Assembly (NCBI GenBank): GCA_004347865.1
Contig: QNUZ01000003.1
Coordinates: 1 to 37,534, forward strand
From: Archaeoglobi archaeon
GTDB lineage: Archaea; Halobacteriota; Archaeoglobi; Archaeoglobales; Archaeoglobaceae
Reading direction: 5' to 3'
Length of the DNA: 37,534 nt
Positions 2,933 through 37,340 of this stretch are shown here, piece after piece. The position numbers and the translations under genes were made by a program. Positions within the stretch are counted from its first letter, which is position 1; every line of letters starts with the position of its first letter. A model generated the notes under the pieces. It did not search any database and had not been told where the DNA came from. It was given only the letters and a program-made list of their open reading frames with translations.

Positions 2933-3017
2933 GTAGAGTTCCGCGAGTATTAAAAACTTATTGAGATCACAACCGAAAGTCTCGCCCTCTAGTTCGGGGA
3001 GAGTTCAGGTAGATGGG

Positions 3018-10823: not shown

Positions 10824-11632
10824 CTTACCTTCACCCCTCTTGAAGCTAGGTATTCCTTAACTTGTGGTATTGTTAATTCCCTGAAGTGGAATATGCCGGC
10901 AGCCAAACAAGCATCGGCCTTTCCTTTTACAAAACCTTCATAGAAATGTTCAAGTTTTCCAGCTCCACCTGAGGCTATTACAGGTATGCTCAACTCCTCA
11001 CTCATAGCCCTCGTGATCGGAATGTCGTAGCCGTCCTTGGTGCCGTCTCTATCCATTGAGGTTAACAGTATCTCGCCGGCCCCAAGTTCCTCGACCTTTT
11101 TAGCCCAATAAAGTGCATCTATTCCGGTCGCCTTTCTGCCTCCGTAAATGTAAACCTCATACCAAGCCTTGCTGCCGTCTTCGAGTTCGAGAATGTATTT
11201 CCCCTTGCTAAGATCAAAGTTCCTCTTGCAGTCTATTGCGACGACAATACACTGGCTTCCAAAGGTTTGTGCAGCCCTGCGAACAAAATCGGGATTTTTG
11301 ACTGCAGCTGTGTTTATTGAAACCTTATCTGCCCCTGCAGACAGAATTGCATTTATATCCTCTAAGCTAGCGATTCCTCCCCCTACTGTGAATGGTATGA
11401 ATACGTTTTCAGCCGTTTTTTCGACGATCTCCACCATCGTCTTCCTCCCTTCTGGTGATGCGGTAATGTCGAGAAACACGAGTTCGTCAGCACTTTCAGA
11501 ATCGTATCTTTTGGCAAGCTCTACCGGGTCTCCGGCGTCGCGGAGATTTACAAATTCAACACCTTTGACCACCACGGCTTTGCCGTTCTTATAGGTCACG
11601 TCTAGGCAGGGAATTATTCTCTTTGCAAGCAT
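10814..11632 (-). CDS. hisF: Imidazole glycerol phosphate synthase cyclase subunit
   Basis: HisF is the cyclase half of the HisF-HisH complex, which builds the imidazole ring of histidine and releases AICAR for purine synthesis. The 272-aa TIM barrel starts [16 protein letters not shown], with the catalytic Asp in CLDV. It has the second catalytic Asp in [10 protein letters not shown], phosphate loops FTVGGGI and ASGGAG, and a usual C-terminus. Length is slightly above the bacterial 250-260 aa. The start codon shares one base with the acyP stop. HisH is not in the window. Confidence 0.96.
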
Positions 11633-11901
11633 TATCTTTTCACCTCAAACCTTTCGAATTCTCTTACTTCTGCGTTTCGCACCTCGACATCTCTAACAAC
11701 CGCAAGCGGCGGTCCCTGACGTACGGTAGAAATAAACTTTTCAAGAGATTCCTCCTCCCCTACAGCATAAATATAAACCCTGCCATCCGGCAAATTTTTC
11801 ACGAATCCTTTTATTCCCAATTCCCGTGCAATTCTTGTTGTGAAGTATCTGAATCCCACTCCCTGAACAATACCGCTCACGTAGATCTCCACGGCTCTCA
11901 T
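11632..11901 (-). CDS. acyP: Acylphosphatase
   Basis: Acylphosphatases split carboxyl-phosphate bonds such as in carbamoyl or 1,3-bisphosphoglycerate phosphate. The 89-aa protein has the family signature [12 protein letters not shown], with the catalytic Arg, and later [17 protein letters not shown], with the catalytic Asn. I start it at the ATG at 11901 ([10 protein letters not shown]) rather than the TTG three bases earlier in the ORF track. A TATA-like ACTTTATAG lies about 27 bases upstream. It is the first gene of the hisF/pncB operon. Carrier-free length is normal. Confidence 0.93.
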
Positions 11902-11958
11902 CAAAAAAGAATCTATCGGGGCTATAAAGTTTTAACCCAACAATGGCTATTTCTACAA

Positions 11959-11996
11959 CTGAAAGGTTCACCCCTTTCAGGCGAGGATGAGGTCAG
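11959..11996 (+). mobile_element. IS200/IS605-like right-end hairpin relic (element A)
   Basis: A perfect inverted repeat (CTGAAAGG, six-base loop, CCTTTCAG) is followed by GCGAGGATGAGGTCAG. The pattern of hairpin, then a G-rich stretch ending in GAGGTCAG, resembles the right ends of IS200/IS605 and IS1341-type elements as I remember them. A related copy lies at 14503-14553. No transposase gene is next to it. It lies between the divergent acyP and polB promoters. Confidence 0.5.
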
Positions 11997-12020
11997 CGAA
12001 ATGCCACGAAATGTGAGTTA

Positions 12021-12031
12021 ACTTTAAATCT
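12021..12031 (+). promoter_or_regulatory. TATA box of polB
   Basis: ACTTTAAATCT is centred about 26 bases before the GTG start at 12052, predicting a leaderless polB mRNA. Confidence 0.5.
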
Positions 12032-12051: not shown

Positions 12052-14394
12052 GTGGTAGAAGGTTGGCTTCTCGATGCTGAATACGTGACGATCGACGATA
12101 GGGCGGTTCTTAGGTTGTGGTGTAAGGACCGGGACGTTTTTGTAGCTTACGATAAGAGCTTCAGACCTTACTTTTATGTTTTGAATGTTGATGAAGAAGT
12201 TATTGGAAGAGCAATGATAAACACGAAAAAGGAAGTCATAACTCCCGAGTCCTATGAAAAGGTGCAGGTTAAATTCTTTGGAAAGACAATACCTGCATTT
12301 ATAGTTTACGCAAAACATCCCCAGCACGTTCCAAAGCTTAGAGAGTTCTTCTCTCAATTTGGGGATGTTAGAGAAGCGGACATTCCGTTTGCGTACCGTT
12401 ATCTGATTGACAGAGATCTTGCATGCCTCGATGGAATAAGGATCGAGGGGAAGGAGATCGAGGGCAAGCTCAGAAGCTATGAGATTGAAAAAGTTGAGAG
12501 AGTTAGTCGAGAAATCCCTGATCTAAGGATTTTGGCTTTTGACTGCGAAATGCTGTCAACTTTTGGTATGCCGGATCCTGAGAAGGATCCTATCGTAGTA
12601 ATCTCCGTTAAATGGAACGATGAAAAGGAAGAAGTACTTCAGGGAAGCGAGAGGGCAATAATTCAGGAATTTGTCCGCCTGATAAAGGAAGTCGACCCCG
12701 ATGTAATAGTAGGATATAATCAGGACGCATTTGACTGGCCCTATATAAGAAAAAGGGCCGAAAAGCTGAAGATCCCGCTTAATATCGGCAGAGATGGTTC
12801 ATCGATTACGTTCAAGGGTGGCAGACCAAAGATTGCAGGAAGACTCAACGTTGATCTCTACGACATAGCCATGAGGATCACGGAAGTGAAGATCAAGAAA
12901 CTTGAAAACATAGCAGAGTTCTTGGGTGCAAAGGTTGACATTGAGGACATTGAAGCGAAAGACGTAAGCAAATACTGGGAAAAGGATAGAGAGAAGGTGT
13001 TTGCACACGCAAGAAGGGATGTTATTCACACCTTCATGATCGCAAAAGAGCTTCTGCCCATGCACTATGAACTTGCAAGGCTGATCAGACTTCCTCTAGA
13101 CGACGTTTCGAGAATGGGGAGAGGAAGACAGGTTGACTGGCTGCTTCTGAGCGAGGCGAGGAAGCTGGGAGAAATAGCCCCAAATGCAGGAGAAGCCCCA
13201 ATGGAAAGCTATGAGGGAGCCTTCGTTATAGAGCCCGAAAGGGGTTTGCACGAAAACGTCGCGGAGCTGGATTTTGCCAGTATGTACCCCTCGATTATGA
13301 TCGCGTATAACGTTAGTCCCGACACATTGGCAAGTGATGGTGAGTGTTTTATCGCTCCTGAGGTCGGTTATAAGTTCAGAAAGTGTCCTGATGGATTCTT
13401 TAGGAGAATTCTCAAAATGCTGATAGAGAAAAGGAGGGAGATAAAATCTGAGATGAAGAAGATCAGCGAGGACGATCCGAGATACAGATTGCTTGACATA
13501 AAGCAGCAGACTCTTAAGATCCTTACTAATTCGTTTTATGGTTATATGGGTTGGGCAGGTGCCAGATGGTACTGCAGGGAATGTGCAGAGGCCACCACAG
13601 CATGGGGAAGGCATTTTATAAAGACTTCAGCCAAGATAGCGCAAGATCTGGGTTTTAGAGTTCTTTACGGAGATACAGACAGCATATTTGTTTTAAAACC
13701 AGGATTGGGGTTGAATGAATTGGAATCGGAGGTTGAAAAGCTGATATCGGAGATATCAAAGCAGCTCCCCGTACAGATTGAACTTGATGAGCTATTTAAG
13801 ACGATCTTCTTTGTTGAGAAGAAAAGGTACGCGGGTATAACGGCCGATGGTAGGGTAATCGTTCGCGGGCTTGAGGTCAGGCGTGGCGATTGGTGTGAGC
13901 TCGCGAAGAACGCCCAGAAACTGGTAATCGAGATAATTCTAAAGGAGAGGGATCCGGAGAAGGCACTGAATTACATCAGGGAAGTCATTAACTCGATTAG
14001 AGAGGGAAAGGTGAAGCTAGAAGACCTTGTGATCTACAAGGGATTAACAAAGAAACCCTCGAAATACGAAGCTATGCAGGCTCACGTCAAGGCAGCAAAA
14101 AAAGCTGAGGAAGTCGGCATCTTTTATCCGGTCGGCTCTAAGATTGGATTTGTGGTCATAAAAGGTTCTGGAAACATAGGGGATCGGGCGTATCCCGTGG
14201 ATATGATCGAGCATTTTGACGGTGAGAATCTTAGAATCAGGGTGAAAGGGGGCGTGGATATGAAGAAGATTGATAAAGACTATTATATAGATCATCAGAT
14301 AATCCCAGCAGTTCTTAGAATTTTAGAAAGATTCGGTTACTCTGAGGCTAGAATAAAGGGTTCATCCCAGACGAGCCTCGAGTCTTTCTTTTGA
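12052..14394 (+). CDS. polB: DNA polymerase family B (PolB)
   Basis: This is an archaeal replicative/repair DNA polymerase B of 780 aa with 3'-5' proofreading. Exo I is FDCEM (D164, E166), Exo II is in VGYNQDAFDW, and Exo III is in HARRDVIHTF. Polymerase motif A is DFASMYPS, motif B KILTNSFYGYMG, motif C YGDTDSIF, and a KKRYAG motif follows. The protein ends in QTSLESFF, a textbook PCNA-binding PIP box (Qxx-hydrophobic-xxFF). It starts with GTG, placed right for a leaderless mRNA. No intein is present. It lies between two same-direction IS200/IS605-like end relics. The ORFs on the other strand are shadows. Confidence 0.97.
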   Translation: MVEGWLLDAEYVTIDDRAVLRLWCKDRDVFVAYDKSFRPYFYVLNVDEEVIGRAMINTKKEVITPESYEKVQVKFFGKTIPAFIVYAKHPQHVPKLREFFSQFGDVREADIPFAYRYLIDRDLACLDGIRIEGKEIEGKLRSYEIEKVERVSREIPDLRILAFDCEMLSTFGMPDPEKDPIVVISVKWNDEKEEVLQGSERAIIQEFVRLIKEVDPDVIVGYNQDAFDWPYIRKRAEKLKIPLNIGRDGSSITFKGGRPKIAGRLNVDLYDIAMRITEVKIKKLENIAEFLGAKVDIEDIEAKDVSKYWEKDREKVFAHARRDVIHTFMIAKELLPMHYELARLIRLPLDDVSRMGRGRQVDWLLLSEARKLGEIAPNAGEAPMESYEGAFVIEPERGLHENVAELDFASMYPSIMIAYNVSPDTLASDGECFIAPEVGYKFRKCPDGFFRRILKMLIEKRREIKSEMKKISEDDPRYRLLDIKQQTLKILTNSFYGYMGWAGARWYCRECAEATTAWGRHFIKTSAKIAQDLGFRVLYGDTDSIFVLKPGLGLNELESEVEKLISEISKQLPVQIELDELFKTIFFVEKKRYAGITADGRVIVRGLEVRRGDWCELAKNAQKLVIEIILKERDPEKALNYIREVINSIREGKVKLEDLVIYKGLTKKPSKYEAMQAHVKAAKKAEEVGIFYPVGSKIGFVVIKGSGNIGDRAYPVDMIEHFDGENLRIRVKGGVDMKKIDKDYYIDHQIIPAVLRILERFGYSEARIKGSSQTSLESFF

Positions 14395-14468
14395 ATCCTT
14401 ATAGAACAATTTCTGAAACTGCTTCCGTTCAGCGTGGGTTGGGGAGCTTAGCTTTTGAACCGACAGAT

Positions 14469-14490
14469 AAGAGAAGGAGTAGAATCTCTT
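14469..14490. repeat. Hairpin upstream of element B
   Basis: AAGAGA and TCTCTT pair across a ten-base loop, just before the larger hairpin of element B. Together they give two consecutive stem-loops in the 14395-14600 gap between polB and the receiver gene, which otherwise shows no gene. Confidence 0.4.
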
Positions 14491-14502
14491 CTGATGCCGA
14501 AA

Positions 14503-14553
14503 GTCCTGCCTTTAAAGGGATTAAATCCCTCTTCAGGACGGGTAGGAGGTCAG
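14503..14553 (+). mobile_element. IS200/IS605-like right-end hairpin relic (element B)
   Basis: GTCCTG and CAGGAC pair as an outer stem around an inner GGGA/TCCC hairpin; the block ends in ACGGGTAGGAGGTCAG. Compared with element A, CAGG, a G-rich stretch and the final GAGGTCAG/GGAGGTCAG are shared in the same order and direction. This is the expected form of a TnpB-type transposon right end, where the omega-RNA scaffold ends and guide begins. There is no open tnpB frame upstream, so it is a solo end. Confidence 0.55.
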
Positions 14554-14576: not shown

Positions 14577-14589
14577 ATTTTTAAATTTG
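14577..14589 (+). promoter_or_regulatory. TATA box of the receiver gene
   Basis: ATTTTTAAATTTG is centred about 26 bases before the ATG at 14608. It supports starting the receiver there and not at the TTG at 14455. Confidence 0.5.
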
Positions 14590-14607: not shown

Positions 14608-14955
14608 ATGAGAAGTGTTATGATTGTGGATGATGAGACTGCAATGAGGGAAATTCTCAAAATCATGTTGAGGGATTATAAGGTCATTGAAGCATCAAAC
14701 GGAAAAGAAGCTGTAGAGCTATACAAAAAAGAGAAACCAGATCTGGTCCTAATGGACATAATGATGCCAGTGATGAGTGGCATAGATGCCGTCAAGGAAA
14801 TAAAGAAAATAGATCCCAATGCCAAGATAGTAGCTATTACGGCATATGCAAGCACAAAGGGAGAGAAGGCTATTGAGGTCGGAGTCGATAGAATAGTCAG
14901 GAAACCATTCACTAGAAAGGAAATATTGAAGATTGTTGAAGAGTATCTTAAATAG
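14608..14955 (+). CDS. CheY-like single-domain response regulator
   Basis: This stand-alone receiver domain of 115 aa is a two-component response regulator with no output domain. It starts MRSVMIVDDETAMREIL, with the acidic pair D8/D9. The phosphoacceptor Asp is in LVLMDIMMPVMSG, a conserved Thr is in VAITAYAS, and Lys is in VRKPFT. I choose 14608 because the TATA box lies about 26 bases upstream; the ORF-track version adds 51 residues encoded by IS-like hairpins and is unlikely. It could pass signals to other proteins through contact, as CheY does. No kinase gene is adjacent; the PAS protein at 22151 is not an obvious partner. Confidence 0.9.
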   Translation: MRSVMIVDDETAMREILKIMLRDYKVIEASNGKEAVELYKKEKPDLVLMDIMMPVMSGIDAVKEIKKIDPNAKIVAITAYASTKGEKAIEVGVDRIVRKPFTRKEILKIVEEYLK

Positions 14956-23409: not shown

Positions 23410-23619
23410 CTATATCGAAGCTTCCGAAATTCCTAACCTTTTTATAAAAATGGGTGCCCAGAAAATCCGAAAAATCCAGGGCTTTAGCTCTGGGATGAAT
23501 GGGCAAGCGAGTTTTTCTGCGTAAATCCTGTCTTCTTTCTTCAAAACCTTTGCTGTCTTTTCCCATCTCTCAGCAATCTTCTTAACCTCCATCCGCACGC
23601 TTGGAATCGTTCTGCCCAT
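23410..23619 (-). pseudogene. Small 'MGRT' archaeal protein, disrupted
   Basis: The first 38 residues (MGRTIPSVRM...EKLA) resemble a small archaeal protein family that starts MGRT(I/N)P and has a KED/R-rich helix; I recall it only by pattern, and its function is unknown. After residue 38 the frame enters the repeat element at 23442-23508, and the remaining residues (CPFIPELKPWIF...) come from that repeat. Past the element another frame on the same strand continues FDIDYYLMLLRRAWEEIEFAIID, which could be the lost C-terminus. I read it as a gene interrupted by the element. It follows the split RecA-like gene with 10 bases between stop and start. Confidence 0.5.
23442..23508 (+). mobile_element. 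IS200/IS605-like miniature hairpin element (D)
   Basis: This block shares TTATAAAAATGGGTGCCCAG and a GCTTTAGCTCTG hairpin with the copy at 37284-37340. TGCCCA and TGGGCA form an outer inverted repeat, and CCAGGGC-TTTA-GCTCTGG forms the inner stem. The TTTAG-loop hairpin is typical of IS200/IS605 ends. It sits inside the small MGRT gene on the other strand. Confidence 0.55.
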
Positions 23620-25147: not shown

Positions 25148-25180
25148 GCTGTTCGGAATCGCAAATTTTCAGCGGAAAAA

Positions 25181-25192
25181 GTTTTTATAACT
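25181..25192 (+). promoter_or_regulatory. TATA box of the pur-car-larB operon
   Basis: GTTTTTATAACT lies about 23 bases before the purE ATG at 25210 and 35 before the alternative ATG at 25222. Confidence 0.5.
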
Positions 25193-25209
25193 GAAAACTC
25201 CGCCGTTTT

Positions 25210-25698
25210 ATGGCGGAGTCTATGAAAGCGGTAATCCTTATGGGCTCAAAAGCTGATTTAGAGTACGGAAAGGAGATAGCAGAGAAGCTAAAGCTTTTTG
25301 GAATCGAAAGCGAGCTGAGGGTGGCTTCTGCTCACAAAACGCCTGAATATGTACTGGAAATTATTAGGGGCTATGAGAAGGAAGATGTGATCTTCGTTAC
25401 TATAGCCGGCAGAAGCAATGCATTAAGCGGTTTTGTAGATGCGAACACGAGCAAGCCTGTTATAGCTTCCCCTCCCTACAGCGAAAAGTTCGCAGGGGCG
25501 GACATATTTTCAAGCATTAGGATGCCCTCGGGAGTTGCACCTATGCTTGTTCTCGAAGCCGAGAATACAGCTTTGGCTGTCGCAAAGATCTTCGCCATTA
25601 AGAGCGAAAATGTCAGATTAGCGGTTGAGGAGTATCAGAAGAAAAAGAAGGAGGAAATAGTAAAGGCCGACAGGGAGGTGACTCATGGGAAGCGTTAA
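25210..25698 (+). CDS. purE: AIR carboxylase, class II PurE
   Basis: PurE adds carbon to aminoimidazole ribonucleotide in purine synthesis. The 162-aa protein has MGSKADL and SAHKTP, then AGRSNALSGFVDANT and SPPYSEKFAGADIFSSIRMPSG. This pattern follows class II PurE (the animal-type enzyme that uses CO2 directly) rather than the bacterial class I mutase that needs PurK. No purK is present in the window, which fits. Its 3' end overlaps purC by 14 bases. It heads the operon; MAES before MKAVILMG may or may not be translated. Confidence 0.9.
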   Translation: MAESMKAVILMGSKADLEYGKEIAEKLKLFGIESELRVASAHKTPEYVLEIIRGYEKEDVIFVTIAGRSNALSGFVDANTSKPVIASPPYSEKFAGADIFSSIRMPSGVAPMLVLEAENTALAVAKIFAIKSENVRLAVEEYQKKKKEEIVKADREVTHGKR

Positions 25699-37268: not shown

Positions 37269-37283
37269 ATTTCTCAGAGATTG

Positions 37284-37340
37284 TTATAAAAATGGGTGCC
37301 CAGAAAACTCGGAGCTTTAGCTCTGATGAACGGGCAAAGC
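37284..37340 (+). mobile_element. IS200/IS605-like hairpin element (E)
   Basis: The second copy of element D: TTATAAAAATGGGTGCCCAG is identical, then a CGGAGC-TTTA-GCTCTG hairpin and GATGAACGGGCAA. It begins 15 bases after the nitrilase stop and is followed by a tnpB fragment in the same direction. Confidence 0.55.

What the first reader, a model, noticed from the sequence alone, without database searches (positions are those of the whole stretch)
11959..12031. Solo omega-RNA-like ends abut the polB and receiver promoters
After element A the TATA box of polB follows about 25 bases later; after element B (end 14553) the TATA box of the receiver gene follows at nearly the same spacing. In TnpB systems the RNA scaffold ends at the right end and the next 15-20 bases act as guide. 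A transcript from these ends would carry a guide matching DNA just before each promoter. They may be leftover or repurposed guide RNAs working with a TnpB elsewhere, or simple regulatory hairpins. This is speculative.
Basis: inference. Interest (0 to 1): 0.6.

Follow-up and report, generated by a model that had tools for sequence, protein, structure and literature searches.

The report
Scars of jumping genes near promoters
The two hairpin-like elements are leftover pieces of a small transposon (IS200/IS605 with TnpB) that landed just upstream of two archaeal genes; they are not conserved and show no sign of working as guide RNAs.

Summary
The elements are real and are ends of a TnpB-bearing IS200/IS605-type transposon, but not solo guide RNAs.

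Element A (11957-11996) is a single-hairpin hybrid. Its 5' side is the transposon's left end (AACTGAAAG after a TTAC-like target); its 3' side is the right end (GAGGTCAG). It is a "terminal-only" scar, with the core and one of two near-identical end hairpins gone. About 40 such copies exist in this genome and one congener. A covariance model trained only outside the window finds A (25.9 bits, E 0.008 genome-wide), B, and an unreported third copy at 2960-3008.

Element B (14432-14553) is the decayed 3' end of a tnpB gene plus its right end.

The closest relative with the same gene order (PolB 87% identical) lacks both; its gaps are 43 and 125 nt shorter. The family is patchy: 5 of 55 Archaeoglobaceae genomes.

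The ~25-nt spacing to both TATA boxes is correct, but A sits in an ancestral ~33-nt spacer between divergent core promoters, so short spacing is expected. The hypothetical guides match nothing else in the genome, and their cis match lacks the target-adjacent motif.

Such scars were described in Haloquadratum in 2011: new member of a known kind, low interest.

The parts
11957..11996 (+). Element A: terminal-only IS200/IS605 scar (left-end outer part AACTGAAAG, one degenerate hairpin, right-end outer part GATGAGGTCAG)
   Evidence: covariance model from 16 outside copies, 25.9 bits, E 0.0076 genome-wide; class comparison
11953..11956 (+). CTAC, presumed target tetramer kept in the left flank (TTAC in most copies)
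   Evidence: alignment of left flanks of solo and left-end copies; IS608 target TTAC (PMC5934647)
11922..11929 (-). TATA-like box of the divergent acylphosphatase gene, conserved in G053
   Evidence: alignment with the element-free relative
12022..12029 (+). polB TATA-like box (CTTTAAAT), conserved in relatives without the element
14432..14518 (+). Element B, 5' part: decayed 3' end of a tnpB gene and the 5' arm of its right-end hairpin
   Evidence: blastn, 74-76% identity over 80-90 nt to tnpB 3' ends
14484..14553 (+). Element B, right-end hairpin with enlarged loop and terminal GGGTAGGAGGTCAG
   Evidence: covariance model, 22.2 bits, E 0.0017 in the window
14578..14586 (+). TATA-like box of the receiver gene, conserved in G053
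2960..3008 (+). Third terminal-only scar in the window, not listed in the finding
   Evidence: covariance model, 31.0 bits, E 1e-5 in the window

Best explanation
A and B are dead remnants of a TnpB-bearing IS200/IS605-type transposon that was active in this lineage. The intact element runs left-end hairpin, tnpA (Y1), tnpB, right-end hairpin, and both end hairpins carry nearly the same ~20-nt sequence (CCTCGCCC-TTCA-GGGCGGGG). An element inserted 3' of a TTAC-like tetramer. Deletion between the two direct-repeat hairpins left a ~40-nt scar made of the left end's outer part, one hairpin and the right end's outer part: that is A. B kept more, namely the 3' end of tnpB and the right end. Both then decayed by point mutation. 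They lie next to promoters because the intergenic gaps are short and insertions closer in would break a core promoter. Shown: left-end/right-end hybrid anatomy, many copies, element-free relatives, patchy distribution. Inferred: the deletion step at A itself, and absence of function.
For: Three classes of copies (left end, right end, solo hybrid) in the own genome and G046. The left end precedes a Y1 transposase gene in contig C114, and the solo in C143 has exactly that left tip. A solo in G046 carries a second left-end subtype, so the fusion arose more than once. A decayed LE-tnpA-tnpB-RE element survives in G046:C10:30425-32105. A model without window copies finds A, B and a third copy. G053 lacks both: gaps 33 against 76 nt and 88 against 213 nt. 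Copies in 5 of 55 family genomes at E<=1e-4. The same process with 19-22-bp end repeats yields 52-bp terminal-only remnants in Haloquadratum (PMC3119063).
Against: No genome examined has a full element at the A or B site, so deletion in place was not seen here. A's canonical hairpin is degenerate and its tetramer is CTAC instead of TTAC. B mixes the 5' arm of one right-end type with the 3' arm of another, which a single simple deletion does not explain. A's genome-wide E-value is modest and shortened calibration makes it rough.
Confidence: 0.88

Rival explanations
1. The ~40-nt solo copies are not deletion scars but a mobile unit of their own: a single-hairpin miniature element moved in trans by the Y1 transposase, and A arrived in its short form. 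It would still be a transposon remnant without a regulatory role.
For: Solo copies outnumber recognisable ends of longer elements in the own genome (25 solo against 5 left and 6 right ends, crude classes). They keep target tetramer, AAAG, hairpin and TCAG end. The Haloquadratum authors raise the same possibility for 52-bp ISHwa23 remnants.
Against: In IS608 both ends carry a hairpin that the transposase binds (PMC5934647), and these copies have one. Solo left tips match the subtypes of longer elements, as repeated deletion would give. The right-end hairpin's own 5' foot (GGAACC) is absent from the solos.
Confidence: 0.25
2. Solo omega-RNAs: A and B are transcribed and supply guides to a TnpB encoded elsewhere (nuclease or TldR-like repressor), acting just before the polB and receiver promoters.
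For: Right-end motif as in TnpB loci. TnpB guides are the flank just after the right end (PMC8612924). B keeps a decayed tnpB 3' end.
Against: A has no scaffold, its upstream part being left-end sequence. Guides match nothing else with <=3 mismatches, and the cis match follows GGTCAG and not a target motif. No intact TnpB seen. No compensatory changes in the hairpin over 16 copies. Elements absent from closest relatives.
Confidence: 0.03
3. Scars co-opted as promoter spacers or protein-binding sites: the right end ~17-25 nt upstream of TATA boxes alters expression and is kept by selection at several promoters.
For: A and B spacing 25 and 24 nt. TATA-like motifs are mildly enriched 17-23 nt past the right end of 43 other solos (scan P 0.006, uncorrected).
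Against: In the crude gene calls the enriched cases do not consistently face a downstream gene, and where a gene starts on that side the distance ranges from 6 to 52 nt or no box is found. The promoters work in relatives without the elements. A and B themselves are more decayed than many copies.
Confidence: 0.05

Closest known systems
Terminal-only PATEs of IS605-type transposons in Haloquadratum walsbyi (HqIRS46, ISHwa23 remnants; PMC3119063)
   Same: Archaeal, gene-free, one near-terminal palindrome with left and right outer sequences fused; about 50 bp; explained by deletion between direct-repeat end palindromes.
   Different: Here the lineage is Archaeoglobaceae, the hairpin and termini differ in sequence, and no strain pair was available to see the deletion itself.
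IS608 / IS200-IS605 family ends (PMC5934647)
   Same: Left target TTAC, AAAG guide at the foot of the left hairpin, right end TCA-purine, no target duplication expected.
   Different: Right cleavage end TCAG instead of TCAA; A itself has CTAC; transposase activity not tested.
PATE-like ends-only element of Halanaerobium hydrogeniformans (PMC7290912)
   Same: Left-end hairpin plus last part of tnpB plus right end, like three 179-223-nt elements in congener G046 and partly like B.
   Different: No left end could be shown for B (0.4 bits).
TnpB reRNA/omega-RNA of ISDra2 (PMC8612924)
   Same: Right-end sequence followed by flanking DNA.
   Different: A lacks the tnpB-3' scaffold and carries left-end sequence instead; no RNA evidence.

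Membership tests
Terminal-only PATE of IS200/IS605 (element A) | Left-end outer sequence and right-end outer sequence joined on a single hairpin | tested here: met
   model match over positions 1-50
Terminal-only PATE of IS200/IS605 (element A) | Related full-length elements with direct-repeat end palindromes in the same genome or genus | tested here: met
   L147 (G046:C10:30425-32105) and C114 left end with Y1 gene
Terminal-only PATE of IS200/IS605 (element A) | Element-free allele at the same site in a relative | tested here: met
   G053 gap 33 against 76 nt; exact junction not resolvable at this divergence
Terminal-only PATE of IS200/IS605 (element A) | Full-length allele at the same site (deletion in place) | not testable with these tools
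   no closely related strain held
Terminal-only PATE of IS200/IS605 (element B) | Left-end sequence present | tested here: not met
   0.4 bits at 14400-14432; B is filed only as a tnpB 3'/right-end remnant
TnpB omega-RNA / reRNA | Scaffold made of tnpB 3' end plus right end | tested here: not met
   A: left-end sequence upstream. B: decayed tnpB 3' end present
TnpB omega-RNA / reRNA | Guide target next to a TAM equal to the left-flank target motif | tested here: not met
   only match is in cis after GGTCAG
TnpB omega-RNA / reRNA | Small RNA bound to TnpB | not testable with these tools
   needs RNA-seq and co-purification
TldR-type RNA-guided repressor | Conserved tnpB-like gene with dead nuclease site beside a conserved guide | tested here: not met
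   no tnpB-like gene at A or B; elements not conserved

The most novel reading that the evidence does not exclude
Transposon scars whose right end lies ~17-25 nt upstream of TATA boxes have been kept by selection at several archaeal promoters as spacers or binding sites, or longer relics (B, and the 179-223-nt LE + tnpB-3' + RE elements in G046) still feed guides to a TnpB in trans.
Probability: 0.06. Interest if true: 0.6.

Novelty: new member of a known kind. Interest (0 to 1): 0.2.

Why it matters
It removes a tempting false lead (guide RNAs at promoters). It also shows that single-hairpin IS200/IS605 scars, described in haloarchaea, litter an Archaeoglobaceae genome. Such scars carry a right-end motif and can be mistaken for omega-RNAs in genome mining, so the upstream flank of a putative solo omega-RNA should be compared with the element's left end.

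Tried and rejected
Rfam scan of the window: only two tRNAs. RNA folding of A and B: not better than shuffles. Within-window repeat search at >=25 nt does not pair A with B; they share only the terminus. Pattern GATGAGGTCAG elsewhere: two hits without the element's other features. First alignments with G053 used the wrong strand and were redone. RNAalifold's own structure for the solo set paired other arms, so the canonical hairpin was imposed. A left end within B at 14400-14441 looked plausible by eye but scored 0.4 bits and was dropped. TATA-spacing statistics over other solos gave a weak, direction-incoherent excess, not taken as evidence of function. The genome-contig scan for PolB found Archaeoglobales MAGs but not the own record.

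Full report
SETTING. The window is contig C144 of a 1.51-Mb, 220-contig genome whose relatives are Archaeoglobales/Archaeoglobaceae MAGs. Element A lies between a divergent acylphosphatase gene (11632-11904, minus) and polB (12052-14394, plus). Element B lies between polB and a receiver-domain gene (14608-14955).

OBSERVATION. A ends GATGAGGTCAG at 11996 and B ends GGGTAGGAGGTCAG at 14553. polB's TATA starts at 12022 and the receiver's at 14578, so 25 and 24 nt lie between. The terminal motif is far above chance in this genome: GGGNAGGAGGTCAG with <=1 mismatch occurs 31 times, the reversed control once; a few of the one-mismatch hits look like chance hits without the rest of the element. In several loci the motif follows tnpB C-terminal coding sequence, and the genome has 26 matches to the TnpB zinc-ribbon family. 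The resemblance to right ends of TnpB elements is therefore correct.

WHAT A IS. Many motif copies are short and gene-free. Compared over the genome they fall into three classes. Left ends read TTTAC-AACYGAAAG-CCTCGCCC-TTCA-GGGCGGGG-ATGG and run into a promoter-like stretch. In contig C114 the left end precedes the genome's only Y1 transposase match, a 94-aa open frame that lacks the first quarter of the model. Right ends read tnpB 3' sequence, GGAACC, the same hairpin, AGGAGGTCAG. Solo copies carry the left end's outer part, one hairpin and the right end's outer part. The solo in C143 has the same left tip as the C114 element (TTTACCTTACTCTGAAAGCC). One solo in congener G046 carries a different left-end subtype (TGACATCTCGCTGACCCAAG). 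The fusion therefore happened more than once. G046:C10:30425-32105 preserves a whole, decayed LE-tnpA-tnpB-RE element. A reads CTAC-AACTGAAAG-(degenerate hairpin)-GATGAGGTCAG: a solo copy.

A covariance model from 16 solos outside the window finds A at 25.9 bits (E 0.0076 for the genome), B at 22.2 bits (E 0.0017 for the window) and an unreported copy at 2960-3008 (31 bits).

WHAT B IS. 14432-14518 matches the 3' end of tnpB genes plus the 5' arm of their right-end hairpin at 74-76% over 80-90 nt (best E 9e-9 in the local set). 14531-14553 matches the 3' arm and tip of the other right-end type. B is the decayed 3' end of a tnpB element, with a composite tip that I cannot fully explain. A left end in B could not be shown.

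CONSERVATION. G053, with PolB 87% identical and the same acylphosphatase-polB-receiver order, has neither element: the A gap is 33 instead of 76 nt and the B gap 88 instead of 213 nt. At E<=0.01 the model finds 42 places in the own genome, 70 in G046, one in G050 and none in the other seven congeners, G053 included. Over the family, 5 of 55 genomes have it at E<=1e-4. This is the pattern of a mobile element, not of a conserved regulator.

SPACING. Both core promoters around A are present in G053, only about 33 nt apart between the conserved boxes, so any insertion between them lies within about 30 nt of a TATA box. B's ancestral gap from stop codon to TATA is about 53 nt. Agreement of the two spacings within 1 nt has a chance of about 6% (inference). 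Over 43 other solos a TATA-like motif is mildly enriched 17-23 nt past the right end (6 of 13 occurrences, circular-shift scan P 0.006, uncorrected; left side P 0.35). Where a gene is called on that side in the right direction the distance ranges from 6 to 52 nt, or no box is found (crude ORF calls). I record this as weak and unexplained.

GUIDE HYPOTHESIS. A reRNA spans the tnpB 3' end and right end, about 150 nt, with about 16 nt of flank as guide, and TnpB needs a TAM equal to the left-flank target (PMC8612924). A has no such scaffold. The 20 nt after each element match nothing else in the genome with <=3 mismatches, and the cis match follows GGTCAG, not a target motif. No intact tnpB is visible, though assembly breaks in repeats limit this. 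The hairpin shows no compensatory change across 16 solos.

MECHANISM AND PRECEDENT. IS608 inserts 3' of TTAC, with guide AAAG at the left hairpin foot and right cleavage site TCAA (PMC5934647). The present family shows TTAC, AAAG and TCAG. In Haloquadratum, IS605-type elements with direct-repeat end palindromes of 19-22 bp collapse by repeat-mediated deletion to 52-bp terminal-only PATEs, which may or may not be mobile (PMC3119063). A is the same kind of object. The deletion step at A is inferred, and mobility of the short form remains open.

VERDICT. The elements are real and were correctly recognised as transposon-derived, but they are ordinary scars. The guide-RNA and spacing interpretation is not supported. 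Interest 0.2.

Noticed in passing
window 2960-3008 (+): A third terminal-only scar (ATCACAACCGAAAG...GGGGAGAGTTCAG), 31 bits with the model, between two minus-strand genes; better preserved than A.
   Followed up: partly
window 25178-25218 (+): A left-end-like hairpin (TTTTTATAACTGAAAACTCCGCCGTTTTATGGCGGAG) directly before a gene start near 25210; no right end found (12.8 bits).
   Followed up: no
window 23439-23465 and 37281-37307: Repeat TTNTTATAAAAATGGGTGCCCAGAAAA followed by a GGGCTTTAGCTCT-type hairpin: looks like the left end of a second TnpB element family. The copy at 37281 precedes a truncated tnpB at the contig end.
   Followed up: partly
G046: L150 (C36:123329-123507), L178 (C32:5358-5578), L149 (C20:8507-8729, minus): Three 179-223-nt elements with left end, tnpB 3' end and right end but no gene; these, more than A or B, are candidates for solo omega-RNA loci.
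   Followed up: partly
43 solo copies in G000 and G046: Mild clustering of TATA-like motifs 17-23 nt beyond the right end (scan P 0.006, uncorrected), without coherent gene direction.
   Followed up: partly
L049 (G000:C137:12458-12507): A solo copy lies about 27 nt after the right end of a different TnpB family (ending GAGCAGCTCAC), so remnants of the two families sit side by side.
   Followed up: no
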